Of a stretch of DNA of 64,000 nucleotides, positions 8,597 through 63,295 are shown in pieces. The stretch is from assembly GCA_007644065.1 (NCBI GenBank), contig VJWN01000009.1, forward strand, positions 682,001 through 746,000, in the 5' to 3' direction. The DNA comes from Margaritispora aquatica (Eukaryota > Ascomycota > Leotiomycetes > Helotiales > Discinellaceae). Both the position numbers and the translations under genes were made by a program. The notes under the pieces are model-generated. The model was not told the DNA's origin and searched no databases. It worked only from the letters and a program-made list of their open reading frames with translations. Numbering within the stretch: position 1 is the first letter of the stretch; every line of letters begins with the position of its first letter.

Positions 8597-10714
8597 TCAA
8601 ACAAGTACAAAATTCATAGCTTCCTCCTCAGTCCAATCCACAGCTTCACCATACATAATCCCATCAACAAAACATTGTCCAACGACCGCATACTGGTCTT
8701 TCTCGGCTCTAGGTCTCAAGATCCAAGGCACTCTCGAGCCATGGAGTACGGCAAGACAGTCGCCTGGCTGTGCTTGGCTCGGACCGAGCATAAACCAGTA
8801 TTTCTTCAGAACCGCGACCCTTCTCCCCTTACACGTTTCGGTACTTACCCATAATTTTTGATGTATCTCCTTCTTTGTTCCATCTTTAGTACCTGAATTT
8901 GTTATTAGTTCTCCCAGTCGATCCAGTTCCTCGAACAGCTCTACTGCTTGCTCATTTGAAACTGGCTTTTTGAACAGTGGCCAAGGGTTGCCATATCCAT
9001 CTGCAGTAAGAGTGCGCACTATCGCAGCTTGTAATTGCGTCGCTGTCGCTGGCTCAACGAATCCTCGTTGAATTGCATGTTCGACAAAACTAAGCCAGAT
9101 CCGAACGAGAAAATTTACGGCAAAATACTGCTCAATATTAACGGGAGTGCCGATCTGAAAATCATGCGTAATTTCAGCGATGACAACGTCGAGAATTCTT
9201 CCTCGGACGGTCAAATTAGAATCCGAAGTAGAGGTGTTGTGTGGAGACTGTCGATATTGAAGGCTAGCTGAGGCATTGAAATCCGACTGACCATCAGGAC
9301 CGCTACTCAATCCTCCTAGTGGAGTGGTTTTGCCTTCGATGCTCCAGTCAGGAACCCAAGATGGTAGATCTGGGATACCCTTCGTTGAGCTCTCTTTATT
9401 AAACGCCAGGACGCATAGATTGCCATCGGCCTCAATACAGCAACGTGTGAAATCAATGTACACTTTCTGGACACTCCTCGTGTAGTCGATTTTCAAATCA
9501 ATACAAGCATCTGTATCCTGGATTCCAAGCAGGCCATATATTCGATCTCGGGGGTCTCGAGAAGCGAGAAGTCCCCCGATTTGCCAGACAGTGAAGGCGA
9601 TTGGAGGAAGCGAATTGAGGTCTCGATACTTATAGTACATCATGATGTACTTCACCATCCCAAAGCTAGGAGATACACTTTTGACATCCCAGTCGACGAA
9701 TAGCAAGCTACTAGCCAGATACAAATGCATAAATTTGCAATTCATTCGTCCACAGACAATATCCACCATACTTTTTCTTGAAGATAGGAGCGCTTCCTGG
9801 AAAACCCATAAACGAGAGAACCATGGACGATTCAATAGTTCAAAAAGAGCTTTCCAACTCGGATCTCCATGAGCTGGTATCATTCCAATAGCTTCAGGAA
9901 AAGCATCAAAGAATTTCTCGCGAAGATGATCCACACCAATTCCCGATGTTTCAGTAATCCAAGAATCAGAGGAATTTGCATCCAGCGTCTCAAAACACTT
10001 GATCAAGTCAAATGCCAGCTTCGCATCCTTGTTTTCTTCCCCAAGCCATACCATTGTGTTTGCAGCCTGGCTGTAGATCCGTCCCATCAACGCTACCTGC
10101 TTTGCTCGCTCATCAGCATCATACTGGTTGATGCAAAGTTGATCCGTCCAAAGCAAAGTCGTCGTATTACCCTTATCTGTTGGTGTGTTTGCACCAGAGA
10201 ATCGAAACAGAACCTCCTGCAAATTTCGCGTCACCATGAGGAAGCCGTTTTCTCCGACGATCACAGGTGATATCTTGTCAAGCGGACCCCAGACGTACGA
10301 GAGAGCTGTGTAGACTGGTAGGTCATCTAAGTTTGCATGCACGATGTCACAGGAATAGTTGTGTCGATCACGAACAGTAATGAATCCCCTGAACCTGAAC
10401 AGCCTAATGTCTGATTTCCTTGCTAGAGGAGTAAACCGATATCTCGTTTTCAATGTCTTCTTTTTTTCAAGGTGATCCAGATATATCCCAGGTGGTTGTA
10501 TCACGGCACATATCTTCTCCGCATATCTTGATTGGATTGCATGCTGCAAGTCTTGATTTGTCATGTTGCCATTCTCGGCAAGAATCTCCTCGACAGCGAC
10601 CTTGAGGGCTTTTGGATCAAAACCTCCTTCTGTATCTTCGAACCAAGTCACGAGGTTTGAAACTGCTTGGGGGAAGCGAGGGCCAAGGGCGTCTTTCATG
10701 CAAGTGCCAGGCAT
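8597..10714 (-). CDS. HET-domain (heterokaryon incompatibility) protein
   Basis: Uninterrupted 705-aa frame. The HET domain occupies roughly residues 130-310, with the three hallmark blocks: YTALSYVWGPLD; LLWTDQLCINQ-DADERAKQVALMGRIYSQA followed by VWLGEE; and PWFSRLWVFQEALLS. The C-terminal part carries the usual HET-family ending (GDCLAVLHGSRVPWILRP, then VVGQCFVDGIMYGEAVD). HET proteins act in non-self recognition and regulated cell death in filamentous ascomycetes, but most family members, this one included, have no known partner. About 130 residues precede the domain without a recognised fold (no NACHT, ankyrin or WD repeats), and no other domain is fused. A P450 gene on the other strand follows about 1.2 kb upstream of its start. 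The start is the first in-frame ATG. Confidence 0.92.
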   Translation of the reverse strand: MPGTCMKDALGPRFPQAVSNLVTWFEDTEGGFDPKALKVAVEEILAENGNMTNQDLQHAIQSRYAEKICAVIQPPGIYLDHLEKKKTLKTRYRFTPLARKSDIRLFRFRGFITVRDRHNYSCDIVHANLDDLPVYTALSYVWGPLDKISPVIVGENGFLMVTRNLQEVLFRFSGANTPTDKGNTTTLLWTDQLCINQYDADERAKQVALMGRIYSQAANTMVWLGEENKDAKLAFDLIKCFETLDANSSDSWITETSGIGVDHLREKFFDAFPEAIGMIPAHGDPSWKALFELLNRPWFSRLWVFQEALLSSRKSMVDIVCGRMNCKFMHLYLASSLLFVDWDVKSVSPSFGMVKYIMMYYKYRDLNSLPPIAFTVWQIGGLLASRDPRDRIYGLLGIQDTDACIDLKIDYTRSVQKVYIDFTRCCIEADGNLCVLAFNKESSTKGIPDLPSWVPDWSIEGKTTPLGGLSSGPDGQSDFNASASLQYRQSPHNTSTSDSNLTVRGRILDVVIAEITHDFQIGTPVNIEQYFAVNFLVRIWLSFVEHAIQRGFVEPATATQLQAAIVRTLTADGYGNPWPLFKKPVSNEQAVELFEELDRLGELITNSGTKDGTKKEIHQKLWVSTETCKGRRVAVLKKYWFMLGPSQAQPGDCLAVLHGSRVPWILRPRAEKDQYAVVGQCFVDGIMYGEAVDWTEEEAMNFVLV

Positions 10715-11951
10715 GGTGGACAGACTTGGGTGCTGCGATCGAGATGGTGATCACAGCAGGTGAATATGCATCGATGTGGTGTCCGGGACTTTCAGGTCTG
10801 ATTCCAAAGACCAGGATATCAGGATATCACAGCCTCTCATATTCCGTGTTACACTGCTCGCTGAGAGTGTCTATCATGACTGGCGCCATGCCTCATTGAT
10901 AGCATGAGGCAGTGCAACCATATCACGTGAGATCACGAGCTACAACTACCTAGGCGATTGCTTAGGTAAGGTAGGTAGGTACCTAGTGCTCTCTTCAAGA
11001 GGAGAAATACCTAGTTGACGCCTACTTCAAGCGAGAAACGGCTGTAGCTATCTAGATCATACTTATCCACCTAATCCTCGTTTTCATACTAGATAATAGA
11101 CTTACTTATTGCAGACACTGAGCAACGTCGTATTACATACTCATGCACTGGTGAGGCTTGCAGGGTCTGATCAGATAATCGCCTATCCATCCAGTAATAC
11201 ATTTCGACGCAAGTATCCTCACACTCTCCATACGGCTTAGTCTCTATCAGAAGTCAGAACCTGAAATGCAGCTTCTTTTCTTAAGCACATTAGCCCCATA
11301 TATTTACACCGCCAGTATGAGTCCGGTAATCTTATTGAGAACCACTTCGGTGCGGGCCGTTCCTCACGGGGGTGTTGTTTACTTCCACGTCCTGGAGGGA
11401 AAGTAATGCTGAGTTTGAGTCTATACACCGGCACTATGGTTCTTGGGATTTGCAAAATGAATTCTTACTGTAGTATCGAGGTTGTGTTACCGTTACACAA
11501 GTGCCACAAATTCTCTGATTGGATATTTGATGACACTACCGAATATTCTCCAGCGACCTGCTTGTGCGGTAATTCCATTAATGCTTCTCGGAATATAGGA
11601 CTAAGGCACGGGCCAAACCTTGGGTTGCTCCTCATCAAAGACCTGTGACCAGTCGTCGGTCGGCGGTGTTATCTCATGCAATGCACGCACAGCTGGAACA
11701 ACCTCCGTATGGTATCCCCAATGATCATCGACATATTTGATGCACACGCAGGCTTTCGTGTCAGTAATTCACCCTGCCTCAACATCTGACCGAAAGCGTA
11801 CCCGAATACAGAAAGCGTGGTTGAGGAAGTTGTGATGAGATTTCTAGTTATATTATAAAGCTAGTCCTCCAAGTTTTGTCTTACCACTTGGCATTCCCGC
11901 AATTCGGCTTCGAGGAACACAGAAACAGCATCGACAACTAAAGATACCAAC
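10715..11951. other. Shared upstream region of HET and P450 genes
   Basis: Divergent intergenic region, so it should hold both promoters. Around 10950-11010 there are several overlapping TAGGTA/ACCTA repeats (AGGTAAGGTAGGTAGGTACCTAG), which form short imperfect palindromes. No gene called. Confidence 0.45.
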
Positions 11952-14438
11952 ATGAGTATCTTTCTGCAGCCTTACTGGAGTCTGAGTGGCCATTGGGTCA
12001 TTACTGTCTTGGGAGCCGTTATAGTGTTGCTTGCTGTAAAGCTTTACGCTGACTGCTCGAAGTCTAAGTTTCCGCTTCCTCCAGGACCAAAGGGCGATCC
12101 AATCATCGGCAATCTGCGACAGGTATTTCTTGATATATCTTTAATATTTCTTTCTCTTTGAAGATAGATGTTTGCGAGCAAGTGCTGCCCAAACCTTTAT
12201 GTTGCGTGAACTCGTGCGCGTTGACACAACTGCAATTTTGAATTCTGCAAAACTGATCCAAGTCCTGCACTAATTCAGCAAACTAGGTCCCGGCTGAGAG
12301 ATCAGATGTGACGTTCGCAAACTGGGCCAAAGAGTTCAGTGAGTTGAACTTCAGCAACGAAGTGGTTTGAAGCTAATGCAAACGCAAGATTCGGACATCA
12401 TCTACCTCAGTCTCGTTGGACAGCCAGTCATTGTACTGAACAGTGTTCAATCAGCCGTTGACTTGCTCGACAAGAAAGGATCAATCTACAGTGATAGACC
12501 ACCATTTGTTGTGTTGGAAGTGTACGTCAATATCTTCTGCCAGCTATTTTACGCAGCCAGCTGCTAATCAACCTTTATAGGCTCGGGTTTCTACACAACA
12601 TTGCTCTCTACAGTGATGGACCTAAGTTTCGCAAGCTCAGGAAACCGTTTGGCAAGTTCCTATCTCAGGGGAATAGCCTGCCATATAGAGACATGCAATT
12701 GAAGCATGCTGGTAGACTAGCAAGTGATATTGAAGGAGCTCCTGATAAATGGCTGTGCTATCTTTCAAGGTATGTCAAGAACGAATTAGTATTTGTGATG
12801 AATATGTTACACGAAAATATACTCCAGTCTTATTTTTTTCTTTCGCAAAGCGATTCTGTGATTATCTCTAGAGATTTTGTAACGGTACAGCACAACATAT
12901 TTCCCAGTTCAGTTTTTATTCCTAGAAGGCCTGCTTTCGACTTAGAAATATTGCTTTTTAGAACCGCAGCAACTGATGGTCTTTTAGGTTCGCAACTCGC
13001 GTTCTATTTAGTATGGCATTTGGAATCGATGTCGTAGAGGAGGACGATCAATACTTCAAACTAGCAGAACAGATGAGTTGGATTGTCAGTCATATGGGCA
13101 CCAGTGGGATCACTCCCTTGGACATTGCTCCTTGGCGTAAGCTAATGCAACTTACTCCCATTGCTATGATTAAATTACTAACAATATTTACTCTCATAGT
13201 CCAGCATGTCCCTCGTTGGTTGGGCAAATACATTCCCTCCGTTAAGTTTGTCCACGACCACAGCCCACTGATCCACGATTTCCACCAGATTCCTTTCGAC
13301 GAACTGATGAGAAACCATGTAAGTCACTATCAATAATCTATTTCTAATTCATTAGACAGAATCCAATCGCTCACATGAATACAGAAATTAGGAACCTTGG
13401 AGCCATCATTTGTAGGTCGCTTAGTCGAAGCAAGAGAGACGGCAGAGCCAAACGAGCAGGATGATTTGAAGACTTACACAGATGACGAACTCAAAGGCAC
13501 CGGAGGAGCTCTGTATGCAGCTGGTCAAGATACTACTTTCTCCACTGAGACTGTTTTTGTCATGGCTATGGTGCTTTTTCCCGATGTCCAGGCCCGTGCA
13601 AAGAAGGAGATTGATCTAGTGACGGGAGGACATAGACTTCCTACTTATGAAGACTGGAAGCTATTGCCGATCGTAGAGAGGATTGTGAATGAAGTTTTCA
13701 GGTGAGTCGATGGTAAGTTTGTGACAGAGACTCGCTGATAGAGTTACAGATTCCATCCTCCTTTGGTGAATGGTATGTACTTTGAACCCCTAGCGAGCTC
13801 CACACTGATGTAGTAGGTGTCCCTCACAAGACTTGCAAAGACGACGTCTATCGCGACATGTTCATTCCAAAAGGTAAGCAAATATCCACTACCTATATGA
13901 CTATGAAAACACCGACTAACTCTTATAGGGTATACATCTTGCCACTCTCTCCCACACTGATATTACTAACACCTACAAGAACAATGGTAATTGCCAACGC
14001 GTGGGCCATGGGCCATGATCCAGACGTTTATTCGGACCCTTCTACTTTCAATCCAGACCGCTACCTCCCCGTCTCAGAAGGTGGTCTTAACGAGCCATTC
14101 CCACAGGGTCATTTTGGATTTGGTCGCAGGTGAGAGTTTACCCACCTCTTCACAATTCAGCAGTAGGTACTTACTGACAATTTAACAGAATCTGTCCAGG
14201 ACAATACATCGGCTTCGCAAGCGTTTGGATCGTAGTCGCGACACTGCTGGCGAAATTTAATATCACACCACCAAAGGATGCGAAGGGAAATGATATATTG
14301 CCTGTGTTAGAGTTCTCGACTGGTATTACGAGGTATGAGATTGGAGTTTGTGAGCTTGGATGAATGGTGCAGCTAATCGTGTGCGATCTCTCTAGTCATC
14401 CGGCGCCTTTTGATGCTGTTTTCACAGCCAGGATGTGA
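11952..14438 (+). CDS. Cytochrome P450 monooxygenase (CYP64/O-methylsterigmatocystin oxidoreductase-like), 13 exons
   Basis: Exons: 11952-12122, 12287-12338, 12389-12521, 12581-12769, 12988-13136, 13200-13318, 13385-13701, 13750-13772, 13817-13873, 13929 (one base), 13980-14129, 14189-14332, 14396-14438. They sum to 1548 nt and 515 aa, a normal P450 length. Seen: N-terminal membrane anchor and PLPPGPKGDPIIGNL hinge; I-helix AAGQDTT (about 316-322); K-helix EVFR; YRDMFIPKG; PDRYLP; haem loop FGFGRRICPGQ (Cys about 456); C-terminal SHPAPF. ER-bound oxidase of unknown substrate. The block resembles the O-methylsterigmatocystin oxidoreductase type, but no other cluster gene is next to it. The predicted one-base exon at 13929 lies between introns 13874-13928 and 13930-13979, both with canonical donor, CTAAC branch site and AG. 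Both must be removed to keep PKG-TMVIANAW in frame. Confidence 0.92.
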
Positions 14439-15145: not shown

Positions 15146-17273
15146 TACCCCTCTCGACGACGTGCAACAAAGGCGCGAACCCGAATTTTGCTTCGTGATT
15201 GTTTGAATCCTAGTAAGAACACTAGACTGGTTGCATGCCTGTGGTGAATTTGCAAAGGTGATGTAGAAGTTGCATCGTAAGAATGCTTCCAAACTGTACC
15301 AGCTGTGGAGGGTTGGCATCTAAGCAATGCTTGAAATTAATATATTTATGCTTTGACATGTAAAAGAAGATGCAAGTAGAGTCTTTTCAACTCATTAAGT
15401 CCAGCCAGCTAGATAGAATGCGACTTAAAAAAAAAACCTTCAGTAAAAAAAGATATTATACACGCAATTCTGTCCAACTTTAGATAGCTTACTCGTACCC
15501 CTCTTGTTGACTTGCACCAAAGCTCTAACTCATCCTCAAAAGTCCAACCAGAAATGTCCTCTATATGAATAGTTTGGCTCTTCATTCGCATCTAGTGCAG
15601 TGACTACCCCTCTCCCGACTTGCAACAGAACCCATAATCGAGATTCTCATAGCTAGCTTCTTCTACAAATCACTCAACTATTGCTGCTAATATATTGACT
15701 ACCAGATACCCTTCGTTCCTCGACGTGCATCAAAATTACATACGACGATCTGATAACTATTTTCTACAGACAATTCGCCTTGAGCATCTTAGGCAATGAC
15801 TGATACCCTCTCGACTTGTAACAACGCTCAAACTCATGCTCGGCACTCTGCAACCAAAATCATCTCTCAAAAAAGCTTAGCTCTAAAAAAATGAAGAGCA
15901 ATAACTACCACTCTCTGGACATGTAACAAAAGATCCAAATCACTCCAACTAGGACATCTTGCTCGGTTCTTGATCTGTAGCGTGGTAAACACCCCGACGT
16001 GTGACAAACTCCAAACAAAGTGTCTTCCAAAGATAACCGAGTTCCGAATACCTAATACAATGATTAGCATGCTGCGGACGACTTGCAAGAAGACTTAGGT
16101 TTGAATTCTAACAATATATCTTCTCCACACATTTCTGATCCAGAAAACCTATACCTATGGAGTACCTGCCCCTCCTCTCGACGACATACAACAAAGACAG
16201 AATAACCATTTCCCGGATCTCCTATCCGAAAGACTAGTTCTCTACATACACCTCATAGATAGTTAGACAAGGAAGCAAGTCATCACTAGATGTTACTTCG
16301 CCACTGTAGTGCTTCCTCGCCTAACTATCCGAAGACTCCACAGTAAGCCTCATAGAAAAGAAGCATGAAGCAAGAAATATGAAATCTCCACGAATGAATG
16401 CGAGAAACCTAATAGTGTAGATATGAGACCCCTACTTATCTTAAGCTCCTAGTGCTGGCTGAACCAAACTCAGATCTGTCCTTTCTAGCTCCATGCCCCA
16501 CATGTCGTTACCATCTGATCGAACCTTCCCTCTCTTGTCTCTCGCTTCTACCTCCTCCGCGCTCTACTACTACCCCTCTTGATCTCGATGTGCAACAGAG
16601 ATAGGGTAAACATTTGAGATATTCTAGGCTAGGGGATCAATTCTCCGAAAAGGACTTTAGAATACTCTTATACCAATAAGTCGCTACTTGATACTCAAGG
16701 CACTTGCCTACCACCTTAGTCAGACAAAGTACTTAATCGTCAACAAATGATGTTGCTCTTCAAAGAAGTAGCACACCTCGCTCTTATTCTTATTCCACAG
16801 AAACTCAAACCCACTAAGATCATCAACCTCCATAAGAAATCTGCAAACACAGACAAAAAGACCAAGGAGCTATACGATAGATCCCTACCTACTTACTTCA
16901 AGAAGTCATGAAATAAATCCGTGCGTCAAACCCCTCCCATCCCCACCCCACACCCCGCACCTCAATGCCATCCGATCAAACCTTACTCTCCCCAATCTTC
17001 CCCCTCTCGACTCTCAACTCTCGTCTCTTATCTCCACCTCTTCTACGCCCTACCACTACTTACCTACCCCTACCCCTCCCGCGACATGCAACAAAACGGA
17101 GAAATCCCAGGCCCAGGCCCAGCACAGCACAGCACGGAGAACTTTCTCTTTCTTTGCCCACTCACTCACTTAATCTACTCGGTTCCTGGTACACCGCTTC
17201 GGGGCTTCTTCAAACACTAGAAACTTCGGCGTCTTACTACCATTACCCCTCTTAACGACGACATGCAACAAAG
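15146..17273. repeat. Degenerate dispersed/tandem ~27-nt motif family
   Basis: A motif close to TACCCCTCTCGACGACATGCAACAAAG recurs, always on the plus strand, at about 15146, 15496, 15605, 15707, 15804, 15906, 15988, 16163, 16571, 17071 and 17243, with a weaker copy near 16071. Between 15496 and 16163 the spacing is 82-109 nt, so this part behaves as a diverged ~100-nt tandem repeat. The DNA between cores is barely conserved except for a GACTACC-like lead-in at several copies. Read on the other strand, many copies begin with TTTGTTGCA and end AGAGGGGTAG. No annotated function fits. It could be an eroded minisatellite, a structured non-coding transcript or a decayed repeat family. Confidence 0.7.
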
Positions 17274-17631
17274 AAACAGACAACTGGAAAGACGCCCAAC
17301 ATATGAAAACGGAACCAGCCCAGCCAGTCACACTCAACTCAAGTGTCCAAAAGAAATGGCACTACCAAGGGTCTGATCCCCTCTCTATCTACCGAGGGCA
17401 AGGAAGAAGTACATATATATCAAAAATGCTACAAATACCTGACTCTATACATTCAACCAAAAGCCGCCGCAACATAAAAATATACATACAATTATCAAAA
17501 CATAGATAAACCGAGAGAGAAGTGAATCGGCGGCCGATATTACTCACTCATCCACTTATCAGACTTAGACTCAGGTAGGTAAGATTAGGTTCGAGCAGAA
17601 AATATTTTAACTAACCTAGTTCCGATTCATG

Positions 17632-17662
17632 GTATCGTATCGTGTCGTATCGTATCGTGTCA
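17632..17662. repeat. Pentanucleotide microsatellite (CGTAT/CGTGT)
   Basis: About six pentamer units alternating CGTAT and CGTGT lie in gene-free DNA. Simple slippage repeat. Confidence 0.7.
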
Positions 17663-18363
17663 TGAACTTTTGACAGTCCCAAGTCCCGTGTGCCAGGAAA
17701 ACTTCCCCGCTCCAGCCCAGACCCGACCCGACTCAACCTCCTCTTTGAAGATAATACTAGCATATGCCTTCAATTATTATTGTAGGTAGGCAATAAACCC
17801 CTCCTTCTCCTTCAGCTCCACCAAGGACGAGGTACGTAGCTCTCAGATCAGATGCGCAAATGGCGAAATGGTGAAGTGGACAATTCTCGGCGAAAAAGAG
17901 GGGTTGGCTGAGGGGTAAGGTAAGGTAGGTACAAGTACACTCGCCCATGACTTTCAGCACCAGCACCATCACTTCTCGCAGCACAAACATGTGAAACACA
18001 ATGGAAGGACCGGGATAAGCATTAACGCGATACGCGATCCAAGAGAAGTCAATTGACTGGGAGGAAAGCACTTGCTAGGTGATCAAAGATAAAAAAGGCT
18101 GGAAAGTGGTGTTCAAAAGGGGACCATGTCGCTTATTTGCTCACTCGCGCGCTCGCTGACTCACCTCAATGCAAAGCAAGCAACTACAATAATAACAATT
18201 TATTAACAGTTATCCTACCGTGACTAGATACATATTGCTTATCAGCAGTATGGGTATATACAATAGACAAGCACTCCATATCCACTAGATGTACCGTGAT
18301 CCAAATGCTCCATATTCTCCATATTCACCAAAGCACCAAGTTTCAAACATATGATCCAAAAGA

Positions 18364-61435: not shown

Positions 61436-63295
61436 ATGGCGTTAATGCTGTACATGCCATTGTTTTTTGTTTTCATCGTGCTTCCAGGAATTGCACTTTA
61501 TCGGGCATTCTTCTCACCACTCTCCAAAATTCCTGGTCCACGCCTCTGGGCCATGACTAGGATTCCATGGGCATATCGTAAGAAGTCTCATTCTATTTCG
61601 AAAGATTTGCATTGGACCACTGAGTAATTGCTCAGTTCTACATTCAAATACAAAATTGCAAGCAGGATATCCTGCAGTTGATGTACTGTATTGAAACGTT
61701 CTTAGGAGTCATCTAAGTTCTGAAATTTACTTTGCAGCATTTCTTCGCAGCATGTTGACACAGGTATTTCTTGGGCACACTTGAGCACAATCACGAATAT
61801 CTTGCTACATTCGGTCACTAATATCATCACAGATTTGTTCATAGGCGACTTAGCTTTCAAGATCGCCAAGCTACATAATGAGTACGGTTCAGTAATCCGA
61901 ATTGCACCACAAGAAGTTTCGTGGACCACAGCCGAAGCATTCAGTGACATCCTCCTTAAGCCTTGGGGCAAGCCCGAGCTCGCGAAGGATGCTCGACATG
62001 TCATCCAACCACCCCATGGCGTCAAATCACTATTTTACTCATCATCAGATTCTGAGCACACCAGAATCAGAAAGAACTTCTCACATGCTTTCTCAGATAA
62101 GGGCATGAGAGAACAGGAGCCTATTGTCTTGAAGTACATCGACCACTTAATCTTACGTTTACGTGATCGTGCTGGAAAGCCTGTGGATATGACCAAATGG
62201 TACAATTTCACGACATTCGATACGATTGGCGACCTTACTCTTGGCGAATCTTTTCATTGCTTGGATACAGCCACTTTGCACGTAAGTCTACCCGGACATC
62301 AAGATATCTCTGCCATCCTGCTAATACTCTGCAGGCATGGATAGCTATGATTTTTGATTGGGTTGCGGGTGCTGCTGCTATGGGCTGCCTAAAAAGATTC
62401 CAACCTCTGGGACACATTCTGACCTGGATCATACCTCAGAAATTAAAAGACGCAGAGAGCGAGCACCGCAACCAAAGCCGCATGTGGCTCCAGAAACGAC
62501 TGACAAGCAAAGCACCTCGTCAAGACTTGTAAGCCTACATTCACTCTTACGCCAAAGACTACTTATTCTCTAACAAAACCAAGCCTCTCGCATGTAATCC
62601 CAAACATGGGAACACCTACCGGTCTCACAGAACCAGAGCTGCTTGAATGCGTTCGTGTTCTCATTGGTGCAGGATCAGAAACAACAGCTACCACTCTCTC
62701 AGCAGCAACCTACTTCCTCCTCGCCAATCCCTCCACCTTCGCGATTCTCAAGTCTGAAATCCTCTCCTCCTTCACCTCTTCGACAGATATCAACATGGCT
62801 AATCTCAACAACCTCAAACTCCCCTACCTCTTGGCTGTTATCAACGAAACCCTGCGTTGCTTTCCTCCAGTACCAGGTAGCGTTCCACGCCTCACCCCTC
62901 CCGAAGGACACATGATCTCGGGACTCTTCATCCCCGGTAACACGGTCGTCGCTCCACATCCTTATTCATCTTTTCACTCACCGCGTAATTTCACCCGTCC
63001 CGAGGATTTCTGCCCTGAAAGATGGTTGTCCCCTACGCCAGAGGAATTCAGGAATGATAATAGAGCTGTAGTGCAGCCGTTTGGGATAGGGCCGAGGAAT
63101 TGCCTGGGCAAGAATTTGGCATATATGGAGATACGCCTTATTCTTGCGAGGTTGGTGTGGGAGTTCGATTTTCAGCTTGAGGAGGAGTCTATGGGGTGGG
63201 TGAAAGGCATGAAGATTCATGGGTTATGGAAGAAGCCTGCTCTGATGGTTAGGATAACACCCAGGGGTGGGTTGAGTGATGATAGTGTTCCTTGA
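61436..63295 (+). CDS. Cytochrome P450 monooxygenase (isotrichodermin C-15 hydroxylase-like)
   Basis: Four exons: 61436-61577, 61833-62281, 62335-62528 and 62584-63295, giving 498 aa. The N-terminus has a hydrophobic anchor (MPLFFVFIVLPGIALYRAFF) and the Pro hinge KIPGPRLWAMTRIPWAY. I-helix GAGSETTAT (about 291), K-helix ETLR, PERW, and haem loop FGIGPRNCLGK (Cys about 437) are all present. The exon-1/exon-2 join (WAY|HLFIGDLAFKIAKLHNEYG) crosses a 255-nt gap; a small extra exon there cannot be ruled out. The C-terminus ends in a short Gly/Ser tail (GGLSDDSVP). This is an ER-bound secondary-metabolism-type P450; the isotrichodermin-hydroxylase resemblance is by general motif pattern, not by a search. 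Confidence 0.92.

What the first reader, a model, noticed from the sequence alone, without database searches (positions are those of the whole stretch)
13874..13979. Predicted one-nucleotide exon between two canonical introns in a P450
Between codon AAA-G (13873) and A-ACA-ATG (13980) lie two complete introns, 13874-13928 (GTAAGC, CTAAC, TTATAG) and 13930-13979 (GTATAC, TACTAAC, TACAAG). They are separated by a single G at 13929. Only removing both and keeping that G restores PKG-TMVIANAW, which is the P450 consensus, and makes all 13 exons sum to 516 codons. Removing only the first intron gives a stop, removing only the second breaks the frame, and removing neither stays open (+35 codons). 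The splice must therefore be all-or-none, possibly sequential, akin to spliceosomal twin introns. One-base exons are very rare.
Basis: partly seen in the sequence, partly recalled or inferred. Interest (0 to 1): 0.8.

Follow-up and report, generated by a model that had tools for sequence, protein, structure and literature searches.

The report
One-base exon in a fungal P450
A fungal cytochrome P450 gene appears to contain an exon just one DNA letter long, caught between two ordinary introns in the codon of a conserved glycine; the same oddity was recently reported at the same base of another P450 group in Fusarium, so it may have arisen more than once.

Summary
In an otherwise intact 515-residue P450 gene (11952-14438, +), introns 13874-13928 and 13930-13979 are separated by one G (13929); removing both and keeping G gives IPKGTMV. 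It is the only two-intron GT/GC-AG solution tested, and no single GT-AG intron restores the motif. AG-G-GT with a branch site arises in 190 of 100,000 shuffles. The nearest named relatives are Leotiomycetes: 5 of 9 annotated models have an indel exactly at this codon, against 0-2 of 9 at each other intron, while 3 of 3 transcript-like sequences read PKG normally. In a Fusarium-rich group, probably CYP621A, where a one-base exon at this same base is published with RNA reads (PMC12940212), only 2 of 50 models have normal spacing (27 off, 21 not measurable). One clade of both groups is rejected (AU p 2.7e-5), so independent origin is likelier. Most likely a genuine one-nucleotide exon: a new instance of a known rarity, not a stwintron. 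No RNA of this species and no DNA of close relatives was available; splicing is inferred. A lost base with one 106-nt intron scores equally well.

The parts
11952..14438 (+). cytochrome P450 gene, 13 exons, 515 aa
   Evidence: model; Pfam PF00067 E 3.6e-69; best 11 homologs 55-70% identical
13817..13873 (+). exon 9, ends ...ATT CCA AAA G (phase 1)
13874..13928 (+). intron 9, 55 nt, GTAAGC / GACTAAC / TTATAG
13929..13929 (+). one-nucleotide exon G, middle base of the Gly codon of the PKG motif (residue 404)
   Evidence: relatives' models
13930..13979 (+). intron 10, 50 nt, GTATAC / TACTAAC / TACAAG
13980..14129 (+). exon 11, starts A ACA ATG GTA (its first base completes the Gly codon)
13702..13749 (+). 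intron 7 (phase 2), upstream neighbour
13773..13816 (+). intron 8 (phase 1 at N|GVPH)

Best explanation
G13929 is a one-nucleotide exon of the mature mRNA. The spliceosome recognises two ordinary short fungal introns, 13874-13928 and 13930-13979, each by intron definition with its own donor, branch site and acceptor, and removes them one after the other, since two machineries could hardly sit on both sides of one base at once. Intron 9 probably goes first because its donor and acceptor are nearer the consensus; the donor GTATAC has AGG before it both before and after that step. The order is not forced. The G becomes the middle base of the Gly codon (G-G-A) of PKG and joins a phase-1 exon end to a phase-2 exon start. 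The arrangement is probably shared by much of a Leotiomycete P450 clade and probably arose independently of the one-nucleotide exon at the same base of Fusarium CYP621A. Shown: sequence, frames, uniqueness of the solution among those tested, indels in relatives' models at this codon, separate clades. Inferred: the splicing, its order, conservation at DNA level, and the identity of the Fusarium-rich group as CYP621A.
For: Only two-intron GT/GC-AG solution in the tested range, and it restores IPKGTMV exactly. A home-made spliced profile alignment, whose profile includes this protein among its rows, scores 121.7 with a one-nt exon and 68.2 without. Shuffles: 190 of 100,000. Solved CYP2R1 aligns without a gap across IPKGT. 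P0001, P0004 and P0007, full ORFs on contigs of 1.6-2.0 kb and so probably spliced transcripts, read PKGS without an indel there. Of 9 annotated clade models, 5 have an indel at this codon (P0003, P0006, P0008, P0010, P0075) against 10 of 90 at the ten other intron positions; Fisher p 0.0036. The three one-residue insertions read G-N, G-N and S-N, as expected if a predictor slips 4 nt to the second GT of a GTAAGT donor (inference). Positive control: in the P0109 group 2 of 50 models have normal spacing, 27 are off, 21 not measurable (11 of these skip from the K-helix exon straight to the exon after PKG); 141 of 148 other homologs and 8 of 9 Colletotrichum models of that group are normal. Published: one-nt G exon, AG-G-GT, middle base of the PKG Gly codon in Fusarium CYP621A, with RNA-seq reads (PMC12940212, whole text read).
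Against: No RNA of this species and no DNA of a close relative. A one-base loss with a single 106-nt intron scores as well (126.9 against 121.7). Intron 10 has a donor away from consensus (GTATAC) and an AAG acceptor. A GC-AG intron 13878-13979 would give PKGKTMV, one extra residue. Four of 9 annotated clade models have normal spacing: P0009 and P0011 with PKG, P0002 with PKS, P0005 with PKR. The clade's models also err elsewhere (10 of 90 positions), and errors in related species are not independent. The indels show trouble at this codon, not directly a one-nt exon.
Confidence: 0.85

Rival explanations
1. A single 106-nt intron (13874-13979) with one exon base missing: an assembly error, or a real one-base loss that makes the gene a recent pseudogene.
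For: It scores as well as the one-nt exon in the spliced alignment (126.9 against 121.7). The gene has other long introns of 164 and 218 nt.
Against: It needs the interior AG-G-GT with a branch site by chance (190 of 100,000). The rest of the modelled reading frame is open. Five of 9 annotated relatives from other genomes have an indel at the same codon.
Confidence: 0.08
2. A single GC-AG intron 13878-13979 that adds one residue (PKGKTMV) is used instead of the one-nt exon.
For: It is the single intron that keeps PKG and the following TMV with the least change. Three relatives' models carry a one-residue insertion there.
Against: GC donors are rare and this one lacks the usual strong context (recalled). 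141 of 148 other homologs have fixed spacing. Transcript-like P0004, sister of P0003 whose model has the insertion, has none.
Confidence: 0.04
3. The one-nt exon is real but shares one ancient origin with that of CYP621A, instead of parallel origins. (Concerns origin only; not exclusive with the one-nt-exon reading itself.)
For: Same base, same AGGGT context, same motif.
Against: Several supported branches lie between the groups and one clade of both with the Colletotrichum rows is rejected (AU p 2.7e-5, quick tree). Intervening groups have normal spacing. Paralog C10 of this genome, on that side of the tree but with a long branch and a place that differs between trees, has no intron at PKG.
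Confidence: 0.15
4. Retention of both introns yields a functional in-frame isoform with 35 extra residues.
For: The unspliced reading is open.
Against: 17.7% of shuffles are open too. The insert would break a stretch of nearly fixed length (141 of 148); none of the 12 clade relatives' models has 35 extra residues there.
Confidence: 0.03

Closest known systems
One-nucleotide exon of Fusarium CYP621A (Nelson and Syed 2026, PMC12940212; whole text read)
   Same: Single G, AG-G-GT flanks, middle base of the Gly codon in PKG of a P450, between two short introns
   Different: Other P450 clade in my tree (one clade rejected; group identity inferred), nearest named relatives Leotiomycetes, 106 nt in all against 139 nt in F. 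graminearum; RNA reads exist there, none here
One-nucleotide exon of Arabidopsis APC11 (Guo and Liu 2015, PMC4674806; part 1 of 3 read)
   Same: Constitutive one-base exon needed for the frame, tested there with GFP constructs
   Different: Plant, base A, unrelated gene, 422-nt intronic stretch
Plant microexons of 1-15 nt (PMC8831610, PMC12409088; starts of abstracts only)
   Same: Very short exons often missed by annotation
   Different: Plants; how many are one base long I did not read
Spliceosomal twin introns (stwintrons)
   Same: Two U2-type introns removed consecutively at one place in fungal genes
   Different: There one intron interrupts a splice element of the other (abstracts); here both are complete and separated by an exonic base
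Recursive splicing at ratchet points
   Same: Acceptor and donor nearly juxtaposed, stepwise removal
   Different: Juxtaposed sites in long Drosophila introns (abstract start); no base kept (recalled). Here one coding base is kept

Membership tests
Cytochrome P450 | P450 domain with ExxR, PERF-like and heme-binding motifs | tested here: met
   Pfam PF00067 residues 43-493, E 3.6e-69; EVFR, FNPDR and FGFGRRICPG read by eye in the translation
One-nucleotide exon | Two introns with canonical ends separated by one base | tested here: met
One-nucleotide exon | The base is needed for frame and protein consensus | tested here: met
   homolog spacing
One-nucleotide exon | The base is present in mature mRNA | not testable with these tools
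   no RNA data for this species
CYP621A one-nt-exon lineage | Gene belongs to the CYP621A clade | tested here: not met
   Window clade separate; union rejected, AU p 2.7e-5. The group was taken as CYP621A from species and model errors at PKG, not from a name
CYP621A one-nt-exon lineage | Neighbouring ribokinase / purine permease / riboflavin genes | tested here: inconclusive
   None recognised by eye among stop-to-stop ORFs of 120 aa or more in 1-34000; no profile search was run on them
Stwintron | Internal intron interrupts donor, branch site or acceptor of the external intron | tested here: not met
   both introns have their own donor, CTAAC element and acceptor

The most novel reading that the evidence does not exclude
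The glycine codon of the P450 PKG motif is a recurrent birthplace of one-nucleotide exons: the same base became a one-base exon independently in a Leotiomycete P450 clade and in Hypocrealean CYP621A, and was kept in each. Such exons are then a repeatable outcome of frame rescue or of paired intron gain at an AAR-GGN site, missed by gene predictors and visible as garbled models at that codon.
Probability: 0.55. Interest if true: 0.7.

Novelty: new member of a known kind. Interest (0 to 1): 0.55.

Why it matters
PMC12940212 calls its CYP621A exon only the second one-nucleotide exon reported for a gene, after Arabidopsis APC11. A further case at the identical base of a separate P450 clade makes recurrence testable: why this codon, whether the pair arises by rescue of a lost base or by a second intron beside a first, and in which order a spliceosome handles two introns one base apart. 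It also gives a practical signature (clustered model errors at one conserved codon) for finding more.

Tried and rejected
Intron duplication: intron 9 against intron 10 scores 5.0; 5 of 28 pairs among eight other short introns of the gene score as high, so no sign of duplication. Mobile intron copies: the 118-bp stretch has one match in the genome, itself (that search skips very common words). Other one-nt exons among P450s of this genome: 0 of 56 other segments; 8 have a single phase-0 intron right after the Gly column and 1 (L065) a single phase-1 intron in it. The 56 come from 72 non-self loci (L002, L009, L012-L081) after dropping scores under 20 and repeats; the family search listed 105 matches, not all fetched. 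The label 'CYP621A2' on P0095 was not relied on. Literature: no listing or 25 shows a Leotiomycete gene with a one-nt exon; the listings also show a one-base exon in a mitochondrial gene of Placozoa, and fungal mitochondrial papers that use the term (not read). PMC5639578 was searched for terms only. Tree rows: one search left out 1 of 159 proteins (over 600 aa); one search used 10 of 12 clade relatives, 12 of 50 P0109-group models, 3 of 9 Colletotrichum, 29 of 148 others and C10. In one search the 12 P0109-group rows alone have weak support (46); with Colletotrichum 100. The Fusarium group was chosen after the first tree, before the second.

Full report
Observation. The window lies in an unnamed 42.4-Mb genome (G000:C49). 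The gene at 11952-14438 (+) encodes a 515-residue P450 (PF00067). Its nearest named homologs are Acephala, Stipitochalara, Xylogone, Hyaloscypha, Tricladium, Chlorociboria and Bisporella (55-67% identity; the best hit, unnamed P0001, 70%); the four looked up (Acephala, Xylogone, Stipitochalara, Chlorociboria) are Leotiomycetes. Exon 9 ends CCA AAA G; then come a 55-nt intron, one G, a 50-nt intron, and A ACA ATG. Enumerating GT/GC-AG introns of 30 nt or more around the site, the only two-intron solution is the one-base exon. No single GT-AG intron restores PKG; a GC-AG intron 13878-13979 would add one Lys.

Chance. Holding the first 6 and last 26 nt of the 106-nt stretch and shuffling the rest, AG-G-GT with a branch site and both halves at least 42 nt occurred in 190 of 100,000 draws; 57 also had a donor as good as GTATAC. 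A spliced alignment of a P450 profile picks the one-nt exon (121.7; 68.2 if forbidden). It cannot separate this from a lost base with a 106-nt intron (126.9), so that rival is weighed by the shuffles and by relatives.

Relatives. No fungal DNA collection was at hand, so I used protein models. Twelve homologs form one clade with the window protein (support 100, FastTree). Three are full ORFs on 1.6-2.0 kb contigs, probably spliced transcripts (inference); all three read PKGS with normal length there. Of the nine annotated ones, five have an indel at the Gly codon: P0003 +1, P0006 +1, P0008 +8, P0010 +1, P0075 -5. At each of the ten other intron positions 0 to 2 of 9 do (10 of 90 in all; Fisher p 0.0036; the models are not independent). 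P0002 (PKS) and P0005 (PKR) have normal length and residues that A-G-N codons could give; P0009 and P0011 are normal. The one-residue insertions read G-N, G-N and S-N, which is [G/A]GT-AAY, as expected if a predictor extends exon 9 by GTAA to the second GT of GTAAGT to mend a frame one base short (inference).

Positive control. Query P0109 (Ilyonectria) brought a Nectriaceae/Fusarium-rich group; names in its list include 12 of the 20 species listed in PMC12940212 (oxysporum, graminearum, pseudograminearum, equiseti, solani, poae, venenatum, vanettenii, redolens, mangiferae, proliferatum, fujikuroi). That paper reports the one-nt G exon, AG-G-GT, in the middle of the PKG Gly codon of CYP621A, shows 18 SRA reads, and says all database transcripts but one are wrong there (whole text read). 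In my set 2 of 50 models of that group have normal spacing, 27 are off and 21 are not measurable; 11 of these 21 jump from the K-helix exon straight to the exon after PKG. Of 148 other homologs 141 are normal, 4 not measurable and 3 off (P0013 is an artefact of my motif, P0078 is longer elsewhere, P0034 has +1 at PKG); 8 of 9 Colletotrichum models of the P0109 group are normal, 1 not measurable. A real one-nt exon thus plausibly leaves this signature. The name CYP621A for this group is my inference.

One origin or two. In a 56-row tree the window clade and the P0109 group are apart, with supported branches between them; holding them together with the Colletotrichum rows costs 47 log units, AU p 2.7e-5 (quick tree). 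Intervening groups have normal spacing, and the paralog on contig C10, which falls on the far side from the window clade though its exact place differs between trees, runs through PKG without an intron. I therefore favour parallel origins. Nine of 56 other P450 segments of this genome have a single intron in or right after this Gly column, so the codon is often interrupted.

Mechanism. Both introns have a donor, a CTAAC branch site and an acceptor, and sizes normal for the gene (the ten others: eight of 44-66 nt, plus 164 and 218). I infer sequential removal by intron definition, intron 9 probably first. It is not a stwintron, whose definition needs an interrupted splice element (abstracts), although PMC7138796 also uses a broader sense for nested introns (Discussion read). 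For origin, either a base was lost next to an older intron and a cryptic AG-G-GT was adopted, as PMC12940212 proposes, or a second intron arose one base away; compare the new splice sites inside an existing intron described for Lipomyces. The data do not decide. Intron duplication is not supported.

Verdict. A real one-nucleotide exon, probability 0.85: a new member of a very rare kind, whose interest lies mainly in probable recurrence at the same base.

Noticed in passing
P0160-P0217: Odd or missing PKG also appears in models from outside Fusarium (Thelonectria, Dactylonectria, Neonectria, Mariannaea, Stachybotrys, Paramyrothecium, Trichothecium, Hapsidospora, Lomentospora), so the CYP621A one-nt exon may be wider than published; Colletotrichum relatives look normal in 8 of 9.
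   Followed up: partly
P0034, Plicaturopsis crispa: A basidiomycete P450 model has one extra residue exactly at PKG (PKGAS), a possible further case.
   Followed up: no
window 12770-12987 and 12123-12286: Two introns of 218 and 164 nt in the same gene, longer than the other ten (44-66 nt); they could be nested introns. No clade relative's model has an indel at either position.
   Followed up: no
window 61859-63196: Another P450 match (C49:743859-745196) with six in-frame stops in the matched stretch, by introns or decay.
   Followed up: no
window 8597-10750 (-): Long ORF beside the P450 that looks like a heterokaryon-incompatibility (HET) protein; recognised by eye, no profile search.
   Followed up: no
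window 16001-18000: Strong local GC skew (-0.28) in a stretch with one listed ORF of 120 aa or more.
   Followed up: no
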